Shown: in pieces, positions 1-9,682 of the stretch
Position numbering within the stretch: position 1 is the first letter of the stretch
Layout: each line of letters starts with the position of its first letter
Source of the DNA: Catellatospora vulcania
Lineage (GTDB): Bacteria; Actinomycetota; Actinomycetes; Mycobacteriales; Micromonosporaceae
Direction of reading: 5' to 3'
DNA: 64,000 nt
NCBI RefSeq assembly: GCF_009720385.1
Contig: NZ_WARX01000036.1
Coordinates: 1 to 64,000 of the forward strand
The notes under the pieces: generated by a model
What the model was told of the DNA's origin: nothing
Databases searched by the model: none
Seen by the model: the letters and a program-made list of their open reading frames with translations, nothing else
Made by a program: the position numbers and the translations under genes

Positions 1-932
1 CGCACCGGGTCCGCCGGCACGGGCAAGGCCGCGCCCGCCGCCGCCCCGGCCAGCGCGCCTGCGCTCGGGCGCGGCCCCAGCCCCAGCGCCGCCACAGCGA
101 TCAGGCCGATGTCGCCGGCGCGCAGGCCCAGGCGCAGTGCGCCGGTCAGCGACGCCCGGCCCGCCTCCCGGGCAGCCGGGCTGCCCGCGCCGCGCAGCCG
201 GGCCGTGCCGGAAGCGGCGAGCAGGCGGCCCGCCTGGGACGGCGTCCACCCGGCCCGCCCGGCGAACAGCGCGGCCTGCGCGTAATAGCCCGCGGCCAGG
301 TCGTACGCGCCGTCCTCGTCGGCGGCCGCCGCCGCGGTGGCCGACGCGGCGACCGCAGCGTCCAGCCGGGCAGCCCCGCCCAGCGCCGCCGCCTCGGCGG
401 TGTGGTGCGCCAGCTCCGGCAGGGTCGCCGAGCGCGTCCCGCCGAGCGCGCCCAGCCGGGTCAGCACCGCCGCGACGCGCTCGTGCAGTGCAGCCCGGGA
501 ACGTGCGCCGAGCGTGTCGTAGCAGACCTCACGGTCCAGCGCGCGCACGAAGCCGTACACCTGCGGGCCCTGCTCGCGGACCAGCCCGGCCTCGGCCGCG
601 TCGTCGAGCCCGCTCAGCACGTCCAGGCCGGGGCAGGCGCCCTCCAGGATGGCCAGGTCGAACTCGCGCCCGATCACGGCGGCCGCGGTCACCGTCTCGC
701 GCGCATGCGGGGCCAGCGAGCCCAGCGCGGCGCGCACCGGCTCGGCCAGTTCCTCGGGCCAGCGCAGCGGCAGCCGGTACAGCCCGTCCCCGTCGGCGTC
801 GATCTGGTCCGCGATCGCGGCCAGCACTGTCGGGTCCCCGTCGGTACGCCGCAGCAGCTGTTCCACGAGACGGGGCGCGACGGATCGGCCGGTGCGCTCC
901 CGCAGCAGCTCAGCGGCCTCTCGTCGATCCAC
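1..932 (-). CDS. Partial ATPase-domain regulator-like protein (3' end beyond window)
   Basis: About 310 codons run off the left edge. The GTG start at 932 is preceded by AGGGGAGG. The first 130 residues resemble the lid and winged-helix part that follows the P-loop domain in large LuxR/SARP-type AAA regulators, with the family-like stretch AAVIGREFDLAIL near residue 90. An alanine-rich, TPR-like helical region follows. No Walker A or B motif is present: the protein appears to begin after the nucleotide-binding core, so it may be a stand-alone effector/TPR derivative or a truncated gene. It is divergent from the proline-repeat gene across 164 bp. Family placement is inference from motif resemblance; no HTH or DNA-binding domain is visible in the part present. 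Confidence 0.6.
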   Translation of the reverse strand, partial: MDRREAAELLRERTGRSVAPRLVEQLLRRTDGDPTVLAAIADQIDADGDGLYRLPLRWPEELAEPVRAALGSLAPHARETVTAAAVIGREFDLAILEGACPGLDVLSGLDDAAEAGLVREQGPQVYGFVRALDREVCYDTLGARSRAALHERVAAVLTRLGALGGTRSATLPELAHHTAEAAALGGAARLDAAVAASATAAAAADEDGAYDLAAGYYAQAALFAGRAGWTPSQAGRLLAASGTARLRGAGSPAAREAGRASLTGALRLGLRAGDIGLIAVAALGLGPRPSAGALAGAAAGAALPVPADPV

Positions 933-1096: not shown

Positions 1097-2254
1097 ATGT
1101 CCCAGTTCCGCGATCTCATCGCCAGGATGGCGGTGGACCCGGAGTTCGCCCGGCACGCACGGGCCAATCCGGACGCCGTCGCCACCCAGTACGGCCTCAC
1201 CGCCGACGAGACGGACCAGCTGCGCGGCCTCGCCGACGCCTCGGCCGGCGCCGGGCCCACCGCCCTCGGCGTACGCCTGTCCAAGTCCGGCATCGGCACC
1301 GGCGGCCTCGGCAGCCTGATCCAGCCCGCCGATCTGACCCCGACCATCCCGGAGCTGCCGGAGCTGCCGGACGCGCCGGACGACCCGACGCCCCCGCCCC
1401 CGCCGCCGCCCCTCGCGCCGGTCGACCTGATCCCGCTCAGCCCCGAGGACCTCGTGCCGGACGCCGAGGAGGAGCCCCCGCCTCCGCCGCCGCTCCCGCT
1501 GCCGGACGCCATCCACCTGCCGCCGGACCTGGAACTCACCCCGCTTGACCCGGACCCCGAGCCCGACCCGATCATCCCGCCGCTTCACCTGCCGCCGGAC
1601 CTCGACCTGTCCCCGGACTTCCCGGAGCTGGAGCCCATCCCGGACCCGCCCGGCCCGTGGATCCCGCCGATCCACCTCCCGCCGGACCTCGACCTGTCCC
1701 CCGACTTCCCGGAGCTCGAGCCCATCCCGGACCCGCCCGGCCCATGGATCCCGCCGATCCACCTCCCGCCGGACCTCGACCTGTCCCCCGACTTCCCGGA
1801 GCTCGAGCCCGCCGAGCCCGCCGAGCCGGCGGAGCCCGCGCCGCCCCCGCCGGCACCCGAGCCCGAGCCCGCCCCCGAGCCCGCGCCCGCGCCTGAGCCG
1901 GCTCCCGACCCCGCTCCTGCACCGCCCGCTCCGGCCCCCGCGCCGGCCGCGGACCCGGTGGCCGCACCCGTCGAGGAGTCCGGCCCGGTCGTGGTCGTCG
2001 TGCAGTCGGGCGACCCCGCGGCGACCCCGCCGGCCGGCGACCCGGCCCAGGCCGGTGCCCCGCAGGCGGGTGCCCCCCTGGCCGGCGACCAGGCCGCCGC
2101 GAGCGAGAGCTCGGACGGCATCGGCACCGAGGAGCTGCTCATCGGCGGAGCCGGCCTGGCCGCGGGTGCGGTCGCGGGCGGTGTCGCCGGCGCGGTGGCG
2201 GGCAAGGTCTTCAAGTCCGACCAGGACGGGACCGAAGGCACCGCGACGGCCTGA
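1097..2254 (+). CDS. Proline-repeat protein with Nif11-leader-like N-terminus and Gly/Ala hydrophobic C-terminus
   Basis: 385 aa; ATG at 1097 follows AAGGGAG. Three regions are visible. Residues 1-50 form an amphipathic helical domain (FRDLIARMAVDPEFARHAR...) that looks like Nif11-type or similar small leader/helper domains. Residues about 85-320 are low-complexity Pro/Asp/Glu, including near-identical 29-residue units built on HLPPDLDLSPDFPELEP. The C-terminal 35 residues hold a Gly/Ala-rich hydrophobic segment (GGAGLAAGAVAGGVAGAVAG) followed by a short polar end, a possible membrane anchor. It is the first gene of a co-directional set with an FHA-M50 protease, a kinase and a pseudokinase, so it may be a substrate or scaffold of that system. 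The function is unknown; the leader resemblance is suggestive only. Confidence 0.8.
   Translation: MSQFRDLIARMAVDPEFARHARANPDAVATQYGLTADETDQLRGLADASAGAGPTALGVRLSKSGIGTGGLGSLIQPADLTPTIPELPELPDAPDDPTPPPPPPPLAPVDLIPLSPEDLVPDAEEEPPPPPPLPLPDAIHLPPDLELTPLDPDPEPDPIIPPLHLPPDLDLSPDFPELEPIPDPPGPWIPPIHLPPDLDLSPDFPELEPIPDPPGPWIPPIHLPPDLDLSPDFPELEPAEPAEPAEPAPPPPAPEPEPAPEPAPAPEPAPDPAPAPPAPAPAPAADPVAAPVEESGPVVVVVQSGDPAATPPAGDPAQAGAPQAGAPLAGDQAAASESSDGIGTEELLIGGAGLAAGAVAGGVAGAVAGKVFKSDQDGTEGTATA
1576..1809 (+). repeat. 87-bp coding tandem repeat (about 2.7 copies)
   Basis: In-frame 87-nt units, each encoding 29 residues from HLPPDLDLSPDFPELEP through PIPDPPGPWIPPI. Two are full-length and nearly identical at the DNA level; the third is cut short and runs into Glu-Pro-Ala repeats. 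Codon-level identity points to recent tandem duplication. Confidence 0.85.
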
Positions 2255-2461
2255 CCGTCCGCACCAGACATGCCGGGCAGCAGGGGTGTGCGCCCCCGTC
2301 GCACCTCTGCCGCCCGGCAGCCGCTCCCGCGGGCTTCCCACTCATCGACGAACCGCCTGAACGGATCACCGTCGTAAAGCAGTCAGCCGAGAGCGTGCAG
2401 CCGTTCGGCCGCCTATGATTCGGCTCGCCGCACGGCTCCATACCCCTTGAAAGGCCGAACG

Positions 2462-4192
2462 ATGTTGTGCCACGCCTGCCATGTGCACCTGCGGCGGGAC
2501 TACCCGTACTGCCTGCACTGCGGCACGCTGCGCAAGGGCGCCGTCGTGGACTCGTACGCGGCGCCGGAGCTGCGGTGGGCCGATGCCGCGGGAGAGCGGG
2601 TGTTCCCGCTGGTCAAGCCCGCCACCACCATCGGCCGGGCCCCCGACAACGACATCATGCTCGACGACGCCAGCGTCTCGCGCCATCACGCCCGGGTCGT
2701 CCGCAACGCCGAAGGCTTCCACCTGGAGGACCTCAACTCGTTCAACGGCACCACGATCGGCCGGCGCACGTTCCACGGCGACTGGGCCCCGCTGCCCGAT
2801 GAGTCCGAATTGCACATCGGTGACATACCGCTGCGATTCGCCCAACCGCGCTCGGCGGCGATCGGCTCCAAGACGATGGTGCGCGGCGTCGAGCACAGCA
2901 TCCTGCTGCCCGCCGGACAGCCCGAGACCGCGCCGACGGCCACCGGCCCGCTCACGGCCCGGCCCCGACGGCGCAGCGGCTGGGCCCTCAAGCAGGTGCC
3001 CGACATGCGCGGCGACCAGCAGTGGGTGCTGCGCAACACCCGCACCGGGCAGTATCTGCAACTCGACGAGCGCGACGTGTACCTGTGGCACCAGCTCGAC
3101 GGCGAGAACACGGTCCGCGACCTGCTCTTCGCGTACGCCCAGCGCTTCGGCGAGCTGGCGCTGCCGCGCATCGAGCGCACGCTGCGCACCTTCGCGGCGC
3201 TGGAGCTGGTGCGCGGAGTGCACGGCCAGCGCGAGGCCGACAAGCCGCCGCTGCTCAAGCGGTTCGGCCAGGCCGTGCTGAAGACGCTGCTGCGCATGGA
3301 GCTGTCGGTCAAGGGCCTGGACGGGGTCTTCACGAAGATGTACCGGGCGTTCGGCTGGCGCTTCTTCACCCGTACCGGCGTGTTCGGGCTCTGGTTCTGC
3401 ATCGTCGGCGGCATCTACGCGATGACCGTGGCCAGCGGAAGCCAGAACCTGTTCGACATCAACGGCGCCGGCATCTGGGGCGCGATCGCCATCGCCGCGG
3501 GCTACCTGTTCGCGCTGATCGTGCACGAGTCGGCGCACGCGCTGGCCGTGAAGTCCTATGGCCGCACCGTCACGCGCGGCGGGTTCATGCTGATGATGGG
3601 CATGCCGTTCGCGTTCGTGGACACCTCGGACATGTGGTTCGGCAGCCGCTGGTCGCGCATCGTGGTGACGCTGTCCGGGCCGCTGTCCACCGCGGCCATC
3701 GCCGGGATGCTCGCCGCGGTCGCCGCCTGGGTGCCCGCGCCGCAGGTGTCCGGCATCGCCTACCAGCTGGCCTTCGGCCTCTACCTGAACACGCTGTACA
3801 ACCTGAACCCGCTGATGCCGCTGGACGGTTACCAGGCGCTCGCGGACGGGCTGCGGCTGCCGCGCCTGCGCGAGGAGGCGTCGGCGTACTTCACCAAGGG
3901 CATCTGGTCCGACATCAAGGCGGGCCGCAAGCCCGGCATCAAGCAGATAGGCATGGCGGCGTACGGCTTCACCGCCGTCGTCGGCACCGGCCTGTTCGTG
4001 CTGCTGGGCTTCCTCGCCTGGCGCGACCGGCTCGGCGGGCTCGTCGAGGAGTACCTGCCGCCCGGTATCGACGTCCTGGTCATCGTGCTGGGCATCGGCC
4101 TGATCATGTTCCCGATCTGGTACCGGCTGTTCCGGAAGCTGACCGGCTTCATCAAGTCCCGTAAGGCCGCAACGGCGGAGGTGGCGGCATGA
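2462..4192 (+). CDS. FHA domain, PqqD-like domain and M50 (site-2-type) membrane metalloprotease
   Basis: 576 aa. ATG 2462 is chosen over the TTG at 2447 because GAAAGG lies 7 nt upstream of it. Order of parts: a zinc-ribbon-like N-terminus (CHACHVHL...CLHC); an FHA domain at about residues 38-105 with GRAPDND, SRHHA and NSFNGT signatures; a winged-helix PqqD/RRE-like region at about 180-260 (LDERDVYLWHQLDG, TVRDLL); then several membrane segments with HESAH at 355-359 and NPLMPLDG with Asp455, the two halves of an M50 zinc site. FHA domains read phosphothreonine, so the adjacent kinase could control protease targeting (inference). It resembles the peptide zinc metalloprotease class but has an added FHA module. 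It overlaps the kinase start by ATGA. Confidence 0.88.
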   Translation: MLCHACHVHLRRDYPYCLHCGTLRKGAVVDSYAAPELRWADAAGERVFPLVKPATTIGRAPDNDIMLDDASVSRHHARVVRNAEGFHLEDLNSFNGTTIGRRTFHGDWAPLPDESELHIGDIPLRFAQPRSAAIGSKTMVRGVEHSILLPAGQPETAPTATGPLTARPRRRSGWALKQVPDMRGDQQWVLRNTRTGQYLQLDERDVYLWHQLDGENTVRDLLFAYAQRFGELALPRIERTLRTFAALELVRGVHGQREADKPPLLKRFGQAVLKTLLRMELSVKGLDGVFTKMYRAFGWRFFTRTGVFGLWFCIVGGIYAMTVASGSQNLFDINGAGIWGAIAIAAGYLFALIVHESAHALAVKSYGRTVTRGGFMLMMGMPFAFVDTSDMWFGSRWSRIVVTLSGPLSTAAIAGMLAAVAAWVPAPQVSGIAYQLAFGLYLNTLYNLNPLMPLDGYQALADGLRLPRLREEASAYFTKGIWSDIKAGRKPGIKQIGMAAYGFTAVVGTGLFVLLGFLAWRDRLGGLVEEYLPPGIDVLVIVLGIGLIMFPIWYRLFRKLTGFIKSRKAATAEVAA

Positions 4193-5781
4193 GCCAGATC
4201 ATGTGGACCGTTCCCGGATACGTTGAGATCCGCGAGCTGGGGCGCGGCGCGTCCGGGCTGGTGGTGCTCGCCGAGCACGAGGCGACGCAGGTCAAGGTCG
4301 CCATCAAGTACCTGGCCGAGCACCTGCGCGACGACGAGAGCTTCATCCGCGCCTTCCGGGCCGAGGCCCGGGTCATGTCCGAGGTCGAGTCACCGCAGGT
4401 CGCGCGGCTGTACGAGTACATCGAGGCGCCCGGCGGCGCGGCGATCGTGATGGAGCTGGTCGACGGCGTCGCGCTGCGCGCGATCCTGCGCGAGCAGGGT
4501 CCCACCGAGCCCGAAGCCGCCCTGGTGGTGCTGAAGGGCTCGCTGCTCGGCCTGGCCGCCGCGCACGATCGTGGCGTCGTGCACCGCGACTACAAGCCCG
4601 AGAACGTGCTCGTCAACGGCGAGGGCCAGAGCAAGCTGGCCGACTTCGGCATCTCGGCGCGCAGCGGCCGGCAGGGCCCGCTCGCGGGTACGCCCTCGTA
4701 CATGGCCCCCGAGCAGTGGGCCGGCGCCCCCGCCAGCCCGTCGACCGACATCTACGCGGCGACCGCCACCTTCTTCGAGTGCCTGGCCGGGCAGCCGCCG
4801 TTCCGCGCCCCCGGCGACCTCCAGGGCCTGCGCCGCCAGCACGAGCAGGCGAATGTCCCGGTGGAGATGGTCCCCGAGGCCGTACGCGGCCTGGTGCGCC
4901 GCGGCCTGGCCAAGGACGCCAAGCAGCGCCCCAAGGACGCCGCGACGTTCCTGCGCGAGCTGGAGGCCGTCGCCGGAGCCGGTTACGGGCCGGAGTGGGA
5001 GGAGGAGGGCCGCAGCAAGCTGGCCCGCCGCGCGCTGCTCCTGGCGCTGCTTTTCCCGCTGGCCGCGGTGCAGGCCAACGCGACGGCCATCGGCACCACC
5101 ATCCTCGGCATGTCCCGCAAGGCGTTCACCCTGGCCGCCAGTGTCACCGCGGTGGTGCTGCTCCTGGGCGGCGCCGGTGCCGCGGCCCTGTGGCCGACCA
5201 GCGACACCCCGACGCCGCTGCCCAGCGCGAGCGCGGGCGAGTCGCCGCTGCCGAGCGAGTCGCCGTCGCCCTCCCCGTCGCCGAGCCCGTCGCCGTCGGA
5301 GAGCCCGTCGCCGTCGCCCTCCCCGTCGGAGGAGCCGGAGCCGAGCCCGAGCCCGAAGCCGTCCCCGTCGACCTCGCCGGCGACACCCGTCGCCCCGGTC
5401 GTCGCCTTCCTACGCCCGAGCACGTGCTGGGTGGTCAAGGGGATCTGCAACGGCACCGCGTCGGAGAACGCAAGCAAGGACTCCCGCACCACGGTCATCG
5501 TCAACACCGAAAACGCCGGCCGGTACCGCTACACGCTGCGGTTCACGGCGATCGACTACAACATGCAGCCGATCGGCACCATCCCGCAGAAGACCTTCCT
5601 GGTCACCGGCATCACGGACGGGACCAGCAAGACGGTCTCCACCACCGTCGACATGACCGGCCTGCTCTACTGCAACACCCAGATCCGGGTGACGATCGAG
5701 ACCACACGGGGCGGCCCGGCCATTCCCACGAAGGTCTACTCTGCACCCATCATTGAGAACGCTGACTGCATCATCGGCTGA
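4189..5781 (+). CDS. Transmembrane Ser/Thr protein kinase with extracytoplasmic domain
   Basis: 530 aa, starting inside the stop of the protease gene (ATGA), so translational coupling is likely. The kinase domain spans about residues 8-265, with the ATP-binding Lys in VAIKYL (K40), the catalytic loop HRDYKPEN (H132, D134), DFG at 152-154 and MAPEQ in the activation segment, so it looks active. Two hydrophobic stretches follow (about 280-300 and 308-336). A Ser/Pro-rich stalk of (SP)n repeats runs from about 345 to 395. The final 130 residues form a predicted outside domain with a few Cys (TCWVVKGICNG) and beta-rich sequence. The architecture is that of actinobacterial PknB-class receptors, but the outer domain is not PASTA. 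Likely partners are the FHA protein upstream and the pseudokinase downstream. Confidence 0.92.
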   Translation: MSQIMWTVPGYVEIRELGRGASGLVVLAEHEATQVKVAIKYLAEHLRDDESFIRAFRAEARVMSEVESPQVARLYEYIEAPGGAAIVMELVDGVALRAILREQGPTEPEAALVVLKGSLLGLAAAHDRGVVHRDYKPENVLVNGEGQSKLADFGISARSGRQGPLAGTPSYMAPEQWAGAPASPSTDIYAATATFFECLAGQPPFRAPGDLQGLRRQHEQANVPVEMVPEAVRGLVRRGLAKDAKQRPKDAATFLRELEAVAGAGYGPEWEEEGRSKLARRALLLALLFPLAAVQANATAIGTTILGMSRKAFTLAASVTAVVLLLGGAGAAALWPTSDTPTPLPSASAGESPLPSESPSPSPSPSPSPSESPSPSPSPSEEPEPSPSPKPSPSTSPATPVAPVVAFLRPSTCWVVKGICNGTASENASKDSRTTVIVNTENAGRYRYTLRFTAIDYNMQPIGTIPQKTFLVTGITDGTSKTVSTTVDMTGLLYCNTQIRVTIETTRGGPAIPTKVYSAPIIENADCIIG

Positions 5782-5796
5782 GAAGGACGCGCTGCG

Positions 5797-7407
5797 GTGA
5801 CCGACACCATCGGTGGCAAGTACACCCTGCTGGACGCAGGGCGGGCCGGACGGCTCGGCACGTGGCACACGGTGTCCACTGCGGAGGGCAAACAGCGCGG
5901 CGCGCTGCGCCTGGAGGACCGGGGCCTGACCGACCCGGCCGCGGCGCGGCGGCTCGCCGACGCGATCGGCGGACAGGCCGCACTGCGCGTGCCCGGCCTG
6001 CTCAACGTCATCGACCAGGTGACGGAGGGCCGGCACAGTTGGCTGATCACCAACGCCGCACCGTCGCCGACGGTGGCACAGGCCCTCGCGGCCGGGGTGA
6101 CCCTGCCGCCGTCCGTCGCCGCGCTGATCGCCACCGACACCGCGCAGACCCTGCTCCGGCTGCACCAGGCACAACTGGCGCACGGGGAGCTGAACGCGCA
6201 CGGCGTGGTGGTCAGCGCCGGGGGCGCGGCCCTGCTCTCCGAGGCCGGTTACGGGCACGCCGTGCTAGGCACGACCCCCGGCCCCGGCCATGACGCGGCC
6301 GGCTGGTCCCGGCTGCTGGCCCAGCTCGCCGACGCCTGCCACGACGCCGCCACCCAGCAGCTGCTGCGCCAGGCCGGGCAGCAGGCCGAGGCGGTCGGCG
6401 GCAGCGCGGGCCTGACCGCCGCGTTGAGCACGCTCAGCGCCGCCGCGCAGCAGATCCCCGGCTTCGGCGACCGTGCCGCCCTGAAGGCACTCGCCGCGCA
6501 GATGCACCCGCTGTCCAGCGCGCCCGTCTCCGCACCGCCGGTGTCCGCGCCCCCGGTGTCCGCACCGCCGTCCTCTGTACCGACCTACGCCGCACCGACC
6601 TACGCCGCACCGCCGGTCTCGGCACCGCCGGTGTCCGGGCCGCCTGCGGCCTCGCCGCCGCGTGGCGTGCCGGCCGCGGAGGAGACCATCCAGCTGGCCG
6701 GCGGCTCGCACTCCGCGCCGCCGCCGGTGCCGCCGCAGACGCCGCGCACCGCGCCGCCGACCGCGGTGATGCCGGTCGTGCCGCCGGACGGGGCGACCCG
6801 CCTCGGCAACCGCGCCGCCGAGGAGCAGCGCCAATCCGGGGCGTACCAGGTGGGCCGGGCCGCCCCGCCGCCCGCGCACCAGCCGCAGCAGGACGTGAAC
6901 CTCCGCTTCGGCCAGGGTGTGCCGCCCGCCCCGCCCGCCTGGCAGATGGCGTCCGCGCACACCGCCCCGCCGCCCCGCCGCAAGAAGTCGGTCGGCAAGC
7001 GCATCGCCGCGTTCTTCAGCGCCCTGACCACGGTCGCACTGCTGGTCATCGCCGGGTACGTCGGCTGGAACTGGTGGCAGGCGCAGAACAACGCGGTCCA
7101 GGTCACCAAGGTCACCGTCACGCCCGTCGTCCCGCCGGTCACCGCTGAATGCAACGTCAACGTGGACATCGTCGGCCTCATCGAGACCGACGGCCAGGCC
7201 GGGATCATCACGTACGAGTGGCTGCGCAACGACGGCGAGACCTCCGGCGCGCTGGAGCAGGCCGTCAAGAAGGGCGAGCGCAGCGTCCAGGTGCACCTGT
7301 TCTGGCGGTTCCAGGGCAAGGGCACCCGGGAGGCCGAAGCCACGCTGCGCATCCTGAAGCCCAGCGTGACCCAGGGCTCGTCGAAGTTCACGTACTCCTG
7401 CAAGTGA
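5797..7407 (+). CDS. Membrane-anchored pseudokinase-like protein
   Basis: 536 aa; GTG start with AGAAGGA upstream, 15 nt after the kinase stop. Residues 1-220 align by eye with a kinase fold, but key residues are replaced: the catalytic loop reads HGELNAHGVVV instead of HRDxKPEN, and the DFG position reads SEAGYG. It should therefore be catalytically dead. A Pro/Ala/Ser linker (repeats of APPVS and TYAAP) follows, then one transmembrane helix near residue 405 (AFFSALTTVALLVIAGYVGW) and a C-terminal outside domain of about 110 residues. The overall design mirrors the kinase upstream, suggesting a regulatory partner. Pseudokinase status is read directly from the motif losses; its role is inference. 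Confidence 0.82.
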   Translation: MTDTIGGKYTLLDAGRAGRLGTWHTVSTAEGKQRGALRLEDRGLTDPAAARRLADAIGGQAALRVPGLLNVIDQVTEGRHSWLITNAAPSPTVAQALAAGVTLPPSVAALIATDTAQTLLRLHQAQLAHGELNAHGVVVSAGGAALLSEAGYGHAVLGTTPGPGHDAAGWSRLLAQLADACHDAATQQLLRQAGQQAEAVGGSAGLTAALSTLSAAAQQIPGFGDRAALKALAAQMHPLSSAPVSAPPVSAPPVSAPPSSVPTYAAPTYAAPPVSAPPVSGPPAASPPRGVPAAEETIQLAGGSHSAPPPVPPQTPRTAPPTAVMPVVPPDGATRLGNRAAEEQRQSGAYQVGRAAPPPAHQPQQDVNLRFGQGVPPAPPAWQMASAHTAPPPRRKKSVGKRIAAFFSALTTVALLVIAGYVGWNWWQAQNNAVQVTKVTVTPVVPPVTAECNVNVDIVGLIETDGQAGIITYEWLRNDGETSGALEQAVKKGERSVQVHLFWRFQGKGTREAEATLRILKPSVTQGSSKFTYSCK

Positions 7408-8095: not shown

Positions 8096-8926
8096 ATGGA
8101 CAACCCGACGATCCAGCGTCGGCGCCTGGGCCACGCACTTCGCCGTGCCCGCGAAGCCGCTGGCCGCACGCAAGAGGAGGCTGGCCGGACCATCGATGCG
8201 GCCGCTACGAAGATCAGCCGGATGGAACTCGGTCAGTCCGGCATCAAACTTCACGACCTCAACACGCTGCTGGACTTTTACGGGCTCGGTGATGAGCCCG
8301 CCGATGCCCTTCGCGAGCTGGCGCGTGCGGGCCGTCAGCGCGGCCGCTGGAGTGGCCGGAACGTTCCCGACTGGTTTCGCCAATATGTAGACCTGGAAGC
8401 TGCCGCGTCAGAAGTCCGCTGGTATCAGTCGGAGATCGTGCCAGGCATTATGCAAACCGAGGACTACATCCGAGCCATGAGTCCCGCCGATCCGGGCAAA
8501 ACCGACGATCATGTAGCTCTCCGGAAGGAGCGCCAGGAGCTACTGACGCGAGATGATGCGCCCGACTTCGCCGTAATCATCAGCGAGTCAGCGCTACACA
8601 GGCAGGTCGGCGGCATTGATGTGATGCATGCCCAGTTGCATCACCTCGCCCGAGCTGCAGCAGACCAGTTGATCACGCTTCAGGTACTGCCGTTCAACGC
8701 ATCGACGTACACGACATCGAGTTTCGGCTTCACCCTGCTCCGCTTCGAGCACGATGCCGGTTCCGATGTGGTTTACCTGGAGGATTACACGAATGCGTAT
8801 TACCTTGACGATCAGGAGACTGCGCGCGTCTACTCTAGGCTGTGGAGCCGGCTGAGCGCCGCTGCTCTCGGTCCGCGGGAGTCTGTGCGGCTGATCGAGC
8901 AGATCGCCGACGCACTCCGCAAGTAG
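8096..8926 (+). CDS. XRE-family HTH regulator with DUF5753
   Basis: 276 aa; AAGGAG precedes the ATG. The N-terminal HTH_31/XRE domain covers about residues 5-70 (LGHALRRAREAAGRTQEEAG... ISRMELGQ). DUF5753 occupies the rest, with the family hallmarks YQSEIVPGIMQTEDY and the ending LWSRLSAAALGPRESVRLI. These regulators are numerous in actinomycetes and pair with a downstream DUF397 protein, as here; known examples (WhiJ-like) influence development. Base composition is visibly lower in GC than the flanks, suggesting an accessory acquisition. Confidence 0.92.
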   Translation: MDNPTIQRRRLGHALRRAREAAGRTQEEAGRTIDAAATKISRMELGQSGIKLHDLNTLLDFYGLGDEPADALRELARAGRQRGRWSGRNVPDWFRQYVDLEAAASEVRWYQSEIVPGIMQTEDYIRAMSPADPGKTDDHVALRKERQELLTRDDAPDFAVIISESALHRQVGGIDVMHAQLHHLARAAADQLITLQVLPFNASTYTTSSFGFTLLRFEHDAGSDVVYLEDYTNAYYLDDQETARVYSRLWSRLSAAALGPRESVRLIEQIADALRK

Positions 8927-9166: not shown

Positions 9167-9682
9167 ATGCAGGTATCCCTTGTGCAGGGCGATATTACGA
9201 GCCAGGACATGGACGTGATCGTCAACGCGGCCAACTCGTCGCTGCTGGGCGGCGGCGGGGTGGACGGGGCGATCCACCGCAAGGGCGGGCCGGAGATCCT
9301 CGCCGAGTGCCGAGCGCTGCGCGCGTCCCACTACGGCCGGGGACTCGCGACCGGCCAGGCCGTCGCCACCACCGCCGGCAAGCTGCCCGCGCGCTGGGTC
9401 GTGCACACCGTCGGACCCGTTTACAGCGCCAACGAGGACCGGTCTGAGCTGCTCCGCGACTGTTACCGCAACGCACTTCGGGTGGCGGGCGAGCTGGGCG
9501 CGCGTACCGTCGCCTTCCCTCTCATCTCCTCGGGCGTCTACCGCTGGCCGGTCGACGACGCCGTACGCCAAGCCCTGGACGTGCTGGACACCGCCGAAAC
9601 CCCGATCGAGGCGGCAACCCTGGTCCTCTTCGACGACCCCACGTACCAAATCGCCCAATCCGTACGGCAGACCGGGGCGTGA
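9167..9682 (+). CDS. Macrodomain protein (ADP-ribose / O-acetyl-ADP-ribose hydrolase type)
   Basis: 171 aa. ATG 9167 is chosen over the upstream TTG because GGAG lies 6 nt before it. A single macrodomain: VQGDITSQDMDVIVNAANSS (ligand-binding Asn), GGGGVDGAIH, then PLISSGVYRWP (diphosphate-binding loop). These are MacroD-type signatures for removing ADP-ribose or hydrolysing O-acetyl-ADP-ribose. It follows the DUF397 gene after 15 nt, probably in the same transcript, an association that hints at stress or NAD-linked signalling. Its TGA stop is formed by the first bases of a dispersed palindromic repeat. Confidence 0.93.
   Translation: MQVSLVQGDITSQDMDVIVNAANSSLLGGGGVDGAIHRKGGPEILAECRALRASHYGRGLATGQAVATTAGKLPARWVVHTVGPVYSANEDRSELLRDCYRNALRVAGELGARTVAFPLISSGVYRWPVDDAVRQALDVLDTAETPIEAATLVLFDDPTYQIAQSVRQTGA

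What the first reader, a model, noticed from the sequence alone, without database searches (positions are those of the whole stretch)
1097..7407. Coupled FHA-M50 protease, Ser/Thr kinase, pseudokinase and proline-repeat protein: a possible phospho-controlled intramembrane signalling system
Four co-directional genes with short or overlapping junctions combine a phosphothreonine reader (FHA) fused to a PqqD/RRE-like winged helix and an M50 site-2-type protease, an active receptor kinase, a mirrored dead kinase with its own outside domain, and a repeat protein whose first 50 residues resemble a small leader domain and whose C-terminus could span a membrane. The sequence shows the domains and coupling; that the repeat protein is the protease substrate and that the kinase gates cleavage is inference. 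I know of no described system with this exact set.
Basis: partly seen in the sequence, partly recalled or inferred. Interest (0 to 1): 0.78.

Follow-up and report, generated by a model that had tools for sequence, protein, structure and literature searches.

The report
Leader-guided membrane protease with kinases
A conserved bacterial gene set pairs large proteins carrying a peptide-antibiotic-style N-terminal address tag with a membrane protease that has a probable tag-binding domain and a phospho-reader domain, beside one active and one dead kinase; how it works is inferred from sequence and untested.

Summary
In detail: four co-directional genes at 1097-7407. A (385 aa) has an NHLP/Os1348-clan-like leader, repeats and a C-terminal hydrophobic segment. 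B is zinc ribbon-FHA-PqqD/RRE-like-M50. C is a kinase with intact motifs; D a pseudokinase with TM helix and conserved outer domain. The set is conserved: of 35 loci with enough flank, A is in 33, C in 30, D in 34, all four in 30 (near-duplicates included), in Micromonosporaceae, Streptomyces and others. A proteins share a leader and a motif ([LV]xxRx[STN][KRQ], 52/52) and run from 92 to about 3,100 aa. The motif resembles the L(X)4L strand by which NHLP leaders bind RREs (PMC12455567, passages). A second, cNMP-type M50 class also has leader genes nearby (15/20; 6/10 among loci not picked for a leader). Best reading: B is an RRE-guided membrane leader peptidase for large proteins, gated by C/D through FHA. 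Domains, motifs and conservation are shown; docking, cleavage and gating are inferred. Searches found no description.

The parts
3..932 (-). partial LuxR/GerE-type regulator, divergent to A; runs off the contig start
   Evidence: two full-length relatives scanned carry GerE, one also a sub-cut-off AAA_16 match; divergent neighbour in many Micromonosporaceae loci
1097..2254 (+). A: leader-bearing proline-rich repeat protein, 385 aa
1097..1270 (+). NHLP/Os1348-clan-like leader of A (residues 1-58)
   Evidence: 28.7 bits, below cut-off 40; 20/20 rows of A3 match at E<=0.01
1265..1294 (+). docking-like motif LGVRLSKSGI (residues 57-66)
   Evidence: pattern in 52/52 A proteins of the gene sets, 0.37 expected by shuffling; L(X)4L-like in 32/35; absent from the orphan leaders L110 and L111
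1574..1810 (+). 87-bp tandem repeat, 2.7 copies
2135..2191 (+). C-terminal glycine-rich hydrophobic segment of A (residues 347-365)
   Evidence: seen only in Micromonosporaceae A proteins
2462..4192 (+). B: zinc ribbon-FHA-PqqD/RRE-like-M50 protease, 576 aa
2462..2539 (+). N-terminal CxxC..CxxC zinc-ribbon-like segment of B
   Evidence: sequence; present in 19 of 20 rows of A1
2624..2821 (+). FHA domain of B (residues 55-120); G58 R59, S73 H76, N95 G96 invariant
3020..3193 (+). PqqD/RRE-like domain of B (residues 187-244)
   Evidence: Pfam 20.0 bits, below cut-off; 19/20 at E<=0.01; bbb-aaa order in the AF2 model at 174-246, block pLDDT 61-80
3524..3538 (+). HESAH zinc motif of M50
   Evidence: H355, E356, A358, H359 invariant in 20
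3806..3829 (+). NPLMPLDG second M50 motif
   Evidence: N449, P450, L451, P453, D455, G456 invariant in 20
4189..5781 (+). C: Ser/Thr kinase with hydrophobic segments, Ser/Pro stalk and C-terminal Cys-containing domain
4219..4935 (+). kinase domain of C (residues 11-249)
   Evidence: Pkinase E 3e-44
5797..7407 (+). D: pseudokinase, linker, one TM helix, beta-sandwich outer domain
5797..6519 (+). pseudokinase domain of D (residues 1-241)
   Evidence: AF2 model; Foldseek top hits include PknA, Stk1 and PknI kinase domains
6796..6813 (+). conserved TRLGNR (T-x-[LM]-[GA]-x-R) in the D linker
   Evidence: 31/33 linkers, 0.5 expected by shuffling; absent in L103, L104
6901..6918 (+). conserved LRFGQG motif in the D linker
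   Evidence: 32/33 linkers, 0.0 expected by shuffling; absent in L125
7003..7059 (+). TM helix of D
7102..7401 (+). D outer domain with invariant C452 and C535

Best explanation
B is a membrane-embedded leader peptidase for protein-sized substrates. Its cytosolic PqqD/RRE-like domain docks the N-terminal NHLP-clan leader of A, with the conserved LxxRLSKSxL stretch adding a strand to the RRE sheet; its M50 site then cuts A close to the leader and frees the variable C-terminal part. The FHA domain makes this conditional: kinase C, responding through its C-terminal domain, phosphorylates a threonine (the conserved T-x-L-G-x-R in the D linker is the best candidate, or C itself), and the FHA-phosphothreonine bond brings B and D together, as FhaA does with the MviN pseudokinase. 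Shown by sequence: the domains, the active-site motifs, the dead D kinase, the leader family, the conserved gene set. Inferred: docking, cleavage and its site, phosphorylation, gating, and where A goes.
For: Gene set kept together: 35 loci with >2.6 kb upstream and >5.5 kb downstream of the M50 part, A in 33, C in 30, D in 34, all four in 30; the two without A (L103, L147) have A and C 20-30 kb away on the same contig (L106, L107). The B stop reads ATGA in 32 and GTGA in 8 of 44 (GTGA is expected often by chance, and C starts were not checked one by one). Of 200 family genomes, 30 have the leader and all 30 are among the 105 with a PqqD-M50 homologue. Leader profile: NH_RiPP_Os17 in 20/20; it hits the solved 85-residue 'nitrile hydratase alpha chain' 6lk7 at E 1.5e-5 and the RiPP precursor SonA/LigA domain at about 0.01. 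Docking-like motif 52/52. The nearest profile of the RRE-M50 part is the daptide protease, described as an RRE-dependent intramembrane peptidase that removes the leader (PMC10036551, passages). NHLP-RRE binding by helix 1 plus L(X)4L is published (PMC12455567, passages). A second M50 class (cNMP domain in 17/20), homologous over B residues 160-564 (hhalign 100%), has a leader gene on the same strand nearby in 15/20. MviN-FhaA: PMC12599244 (passages); pseudokinase YukC with FHA of YukB: PMC9600267 (passages).
Against: No cleavage or binding data. PqqD, M50 and leader hits in the window proteins are each below curated cut-offs. In class 2, Pfam PqqD matched 0 of 20 at E<=0.01, and 10 of the 20 loci had been picked because their genome had a leader hit; among the other 10 a leader gene was found in 6 (L067, L069, L079-L082). 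Best hit of the leader profile in the PDB was an unrelated-looking 20-residue match (8vd6, E 1.2e-6, no stretch passing alone). Three Catenulisporales MAG loci show no C or D, and two of them (short contigs) no A; the third's A is a 92-aa protein 8 kb away. The two most remote B genomes have only weak leader matches, 16-18 bits. Neighbours were only partly annotated, so an exporter is neither shown nor excluded; an MFS gene lies upstream in Catellatospora. The D-linker Thr has no textbook FHA +3 residue (recalled), and its phosphorylation is a guess. D is reduced to TM plus outer domain in two Actinomycetospora loci.
Confidence: 0.5

Rival explanations
1. Docking without cleavage of A: the leader tethers large A proteins to the membrane through B's RRE, and M50 cuts another partner (for example D, C or an unlinked protein).
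For: A proteins share the leader but no common membrane segment to be cut (listed in 12/35); leader and RRE-M50 genes are kept together.
Against: The nearest profile of the RRE-M50 part is a leader-removing protease (PMC10036551, passages), and the zinc motifs are invariant in 20/20.
Confidence: 0.2
2. One reading: regulated intramembrane proteolysis in which B cuts the C-terminal membrane segment of A under kinase control, releasing a cytosolic signal.
For: TM-like C-terminal segment in 12 of 13 Micromonosporaceae A proteins; M50 motifs; FHA and kinase present.
Against: The segment was not seen in any of the 22 A proteins listed outside that family (3 of them not judgeable) although the gene set persists in most.
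Confidence: 0.12
3. A true RiPP pathway making a small modified peptide cut out of A.
For: NHLP-clan leader and RRE-like domain; short stand-alone leader proteins of 91-104 aa exist elsewhere in these genomes.
Against: A proteins in the set run up to about 3,100 aa; no modifying enzyme stood out, but neighbours were only partly annotated.
Confidence: 0.08
4. An anti-phage defence module (kinase as sensor).
For: C matches PD-T4-6 kinase models in PADLOC (218 bits), D weakly (24 bits).
Against: A and B match no PADLOC model at E<=0.001; many PADLOC kinase models match C, so the hit looks generic.
Confidence: 0.05

Closest known systems
Daptide leader protease MpaP (NF041824, PMC10036551)
   Same: RRE fused to an intramembrane peptidase that works on leader-bearing precursors; B residues 179-525 match its profile.
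   Different: Score 136.6 against a cut-off of 300; FHA and zinc ribbon added; substrates are large proteins, not short peptides with a C-terminal Thr. Daptide enzymes were not searched for systematically nearby.
NHLP / Os1348-clan RiPP precursors (NF038399; PMC2887384)
   Same: Same leader clan (20/20 chosen leaders at E<=0.01) followed by an L(X)4L-like motif.
   Different: Window leader is below the curated cut-off; what follows is a protein of 92 to about 3,100 aa rather than a short core; the conserved neighbours are kinases.
PknB-MviN(pseudokinase)-FhaA complex of mycobacteria
   Same: Kinase, membrane pseudokinase and FHA partner; in MviN the phosphorylated C-terminal tail of the pseudokinase recruits FHA (PMC12599244, passages); FhaA-Rv3910 structure 3oun is among the FHA matches.
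   Different: Here the FHA domain is fused to a protease, and D carries an outer beta-sandwich (that MviN is a flippase is recalled).
YukC/EssB pseudokinase of type VIIb secretion (PMC9600267, passages)
   Same: Pseudokinase-TM-extracellular domain protein whose pseudokinase part copurifies with an FHA region.
   Different: The FHA there belongs to an ATPase; no protease or leader protein. No sequence comparison with D was made.
YydH/LiaK epipeptide maturation metalloprotease (NF058609)
   Same: B residues 318-460 match, E 4.1e-8.
   Different: 33.2 bits against a cut-off of 225.

Membership tests
Site-2 (M50) intramembrane protease | HExxH and NPxxPLDG motifs in a protein with membrane helices | tested here: met
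   Motif residues invariant in 20/20; five hydrophobic segments. The window protein alone scores below the Pfam cut-off.
RRE / PqqD-like leader-binding domain | PqqD-family match and bbb-aaa order | tested here: inconclusive
   19/20 at E<=0.01 but 20.0 bits against 23.4 in the window; AF2 gives three strands then three helices with modest confidence; class 2 gives no PqqD match (0/20); binding not tested.
NHLP/Os1348-clan leader (NF038399) | score above the curated cut-off of 40 bits | tested here: not met
   28.7 and 34.0 bits for the window protein; related at E 2.3e-8, and 20/20 chosen leaders match at E<=0.01.
Daptide biosynthesis protease (NF041824) | score above 300 bits | tested here: not met
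   136.6 bits.
Daptide pathway | short precursors with ELExMEAP motif and C-terminal Thr | tested here: not met
   A is 385 aa, ends in ...GTATA and has no such motif in its translation; features from PMC10036551 (passages).
FHA domain | GR, SxxH, NG residues (recalled as the phosphothreonine-binding set) | tested here: met
   All invariant in 20/20; Pfam 56.6 bits. Binding not tested.
Active Hanks-type kinase (C) | VAIK, HRD, DFG | tested here: met
   Present in the window and in the other C rows except that L144 lacks VA[IV]K. Activity not tested.
Pseudokinase (D) | kinase fold without catalytic residues | tested here: met
   Fold: (PknA, E 1e-8). Window D has no VA[IV]K, HRD or DFG. In relatives no D row has VA[IV]K; the letters DFG occur in two (within HGDFG, L103, L147) and HRD letters in six Streptomyces ORFs at positions not checked.
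MviN/FhaA-type phospho-pseudokinase complex | phosphothreonine in the pseudokinase tail bound by FHA | not testable with these tools
   A conserved Thr motif exists in the D linker (31/33); phosphorylation unknown.

The most novel reading that the evidence does not exclude
RiPP-style leader/RRE recognition has been turned into a general maturation route for large, even giant (about 3,100 aa), repetitive proteins, carried out by a membrane protease whose activity is switched by a kinase-pseudokinase-FHA relay in one branch and by a cNMP-type domain in another.
Probability: 0.35. Interest if true: 0.85.

Novelty: new variant of a known kind. Interest (0 to 1): 0.66.

Why it matters
If right, leader-guided processing, known from peptide natural products, also governs very large bacterial proteins and is under Ser/Thr-kinase control. 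It gives a concrete substrate family and a mechanism for a group of FHA-M50 proteases for which I found no description, and a role for a membrane pseudokinase. It also offers a simple rule to find substrates: NHLP-clan leader plus LxxRLSKS beside an RRE-M50 gene.

Tried and rejected
C-terminal membrane segment of A as the common substrate: rejected as general (12/35; simple hydropathy, not a dedicated predictor). A first FHA-ligand pattern in the D linker ([DE]xT[VTIML]x[LIV]) was present in Catellatospora, Hamadaea and Longispora but in only 1 of 12 Streptomyces linkers listed, so it was replaced by T-x-[LM]-[GA]-x-R, a pattern chosen after looking at the sequences; the same is true of the A motif. 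Defence module: kinase hits only. Foldseek and VIA on B were filled by FHA matches, so they say nothing on the RRE or M50 folds. Actinobacterial pseudokinase families ActPs1-3: read in PMC12599244; I had no profiles to test D against them. Promoter and terminator scan gave nothing above shuffles. Not tried: coevolution of leader and RRE, trees, systematic annotation of neighbours, whether the orphan short leader proteins are substrates of B.

Paper searches: 22, 23, 25, 59, 60, 61, 85 (open-licence PMC papers only); aimed at an FHA-M50-kinase system and listed none. Papers seen: passages of PMC10036551, PMC12455567 (abstract 71), PMC2887384, PMC12710340, PMC7470986, PMC3989709, PMC9600267, PMC12599244 (abstract 87; sections 6, 7, 9 in 89-91).

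Limits of the counts. Gene calls in relatives come from my own codon-usage script, which missed A genes under antisense ORFs in Streptomyces and genes in L101/L122; six-frame searches were used for the counts. The HMMs were built from these same families, so many rows match by construction (in class 2, seven of the fifteen leader rows: L071, L072, L074-L078). The 44 class-1 loci include close species (11 Catellatospora with the window, 16 Streptomyces records) and two assemblies of S. diastatochromogenes, one with broken frames (L148, left as it is). In one search, four duplicate loci (L134, L142, L146, L147) were dropped and D proteins of 180 aa or less (L139, L140, L149) were left out by a length filter; D of L099/L123 and L101/L122 were not in the set; the two L108 proteins were given on the wrong strand; repeated rightly. 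The class-2 N-terminal motif was undercounted (15/20) and recounted with a looser pattern (19/20).
Full report
The window holds four genes on the + strand at 1097-7407. A is 385 aa: a 58-residue leader, a proline-rich region with 2.7 copies of an 87-bp repeat and a glycine-rich hydrophobic C-terminus. B is 576 aa: a CxxC-type zinc ribbon, an FHA domain, a PqqD/RRE-like domain and an M50 protease. C is a kinase with the catalytic motifs, D a pseudokinase without them. B and C overlap by 4 nt. The AF2 model of D has a kinase-like domain, a TM helix and a beta-sandwich outer domain (pLDDT 73.8), and PknA, Stk1 and PknI kinase domains are among the top Foldseek hits. The AF2 model of B is weaker (pLDDT 66.4, pTM 0.42) but shows three strands then three helices at 174-246, the order expected of PqqD.

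Conservation. In 200 genomes of the family, 105 have a homologue of B (E<=1e-20), of which 21 are the close type (52% identity or more) and the rest mostly lie in ORFs of about 1,000-1,370 aa. The leader (single 58-aa query) is found in 30 of the 200, and all 30 are among the 105. A scan of named genomes with two peptide patterns gave 44 loci, 37 of them of the FHA-M50 type (L114-L150); contigs of the same-genus genomes reappear there as Catellatospora, so the window's genus is taken to be Catellatospora. The type also occurs in Hamadaea, Catelliglobosispora, Rhizocola, Longispora, 16 Streptomyces records, two Actinomycetospora, three Catenulisporales MAGs, a Jatrophihabitans MAG and one Chloroflexi MAG (46% identity; a MAG may be misbinned). 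In 396 genomes across the phylum, 4 have B at E<=1e-60 and 21 have a leader match at E<=1e-3, many of them weak. In the two most distant B genomes the gene after B has a weak leader match of 16-18 bits.

Gene-set count (44 class-1 loci): A in 34, C in 37, D (pseudokinase or outer domain) in 40, all in 31. Of the 35 with enough flank: 33, 30, 34 and 30. L103 and L147 have A and C at a second site on the same contig (L106, L107). Three Catenulisporales MAG loci lack C and D in the sequence held (L141, L143, L145), and L143 and L145 also A; the A counted for L141 is a 92-aa protein 8 kb away. Two Actinomycetospora loci have D as TM plus outer domain only, and their A proteins are 2,216 and about 3,120 aa. 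The Chloroflexi MAG locus has five leader-bearing ORFs, B and D, and no C above threshold. The B stop reads ATGA in 32 of 44 and GTGA in 8.

What A proteins share. All 52 scanned have [LV]xxRx[STN][KRQ] shortly after the leader (0.37 expected by shuffling). In 32 of 35 from named genomes, the residue after Arg and the one five further on are both L, I, V, M or F, as in the L(X)4L motif that, with helix 1, binds an NHLP leader to an RRE in MprE7-MprC (PMC12455567, passages). The pattern was drawn from these sequences, so the shuffle figure describes conservation, not an independent test; two orphan leader proteins outside the gene set (L110, L111) lack it. The leader profile, from 20 leaders that I chose, matches the NHLP clan in 20/20 and, in the PDB, nitrile-hydratase 6lk7 (E 1.5e-5) and LigA/SonA domains (about 0.01); the top row there was a 20-residue match to 8vd6 that I take as chance. 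Beyond that the proteins differ: proline-rich, glycine-rich, or with thrombospondin-3-like Asp repeats (TSP_3 16.8 bits, below its cut-off 25).

Second class. The ~1,100-aa homologues share the RRE and M50 region with B (hhalign probability 100%, B 160-564) and carry a cNMP-binding-like domain in 17/20 where class 1 has FHA; Pfam PqqD itself matched none of the 20, though one member weakly hit a RiPP-binding protein, ApyI (E 0.0021). A leader gene lies nearby on the same strand in 15 of 20 loci. Ten of these loci were picked because or 68 had shown a leader in that genome (9 of 10 have it beside the M50 gene); of the other ten, six have it. Leader protein plus RRE-M50 thus looks like a frequent, not constant, core, with a varying cytosolic switch domain.

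D linker. In an otherwise variable linker, T-x-[LM]-[GA]-x-R is found in 31 of 33 and [LVI]RFGxG in 32 of 33. By analogy with MviN, whose phosphorylated tail recruits FhaA (PMC12599244, passages), the Thr is a candidate FHA ligand. This is inference. YukC/EssB, a pseudokinase-TM-extracellular protein that copurifies with an FHA region (PMC9600267, passages), is a second parallel.

Mechanism and confidence. The most likely reading is an RRE-guided leader peptidase for large proteins under kinase-FHA control (0.5). RRE-dependent leader removal by the daptide protease (PMC10036551, passages) is the main precedent. Docking, cleavage, its site, phosphorylation and the fate of A are not shown.

Noticed in passing
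L108:7244-7558 (G000:C1 about 1147357-1147557): A second, short (104-105 aa) leader protein elsewhere in the same genome with the same RLSKSG motif, beside a phosphate transporter (PHO4, 100 bits) and a DUF47/PhoU-like gene; a relative in L109. Other short leader proteins in L110 and L111, without the motif.
   Followed up: partly
N-termini of class-2 M50 proteins, e.g. L075:7727: V[ED]x[RH]xx[VFL]WxxLxG-type stretch (mostly VETRxSVWEALAG) at the start of the protease in 19 of 20, resembling the VExRxS motif of its leader protein; possibly a built-in pseudo-leader.
   Followed up: partly
L140:592-9954 and L139:3316-9966: Leader-bearing proteins of about 3,120 and 2,216 aa in Actinomycetospora, ending in PWNW.
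   Followed up: partly
L149:5807-21711: Chloroflexi MAG with five leader-bearing ORFs around one FHA-M50 gene; one contains an OCRE-domain match.
   Followed up: partly
window 9167-9682: Macro-domain gene downstream of D (144 bits; the L089 neighbour is also Macro); a gene of 169-171 aa follows D in several Catellatospora loci.
   Followed up: partly
window 8096-8926: HTH_31-DUF5753 regulator between D and the macro-domain gene.
   Followed up: no
L066, L070, L076, L077 near the M50 gene: A 71-aa cysteine-rich protein MLCWFC.. lies next to class-2 M50 genes, reminiscent of the zinc-ribbon start MLCHAC of B (weak C5HCH match).
   Followed up: partly
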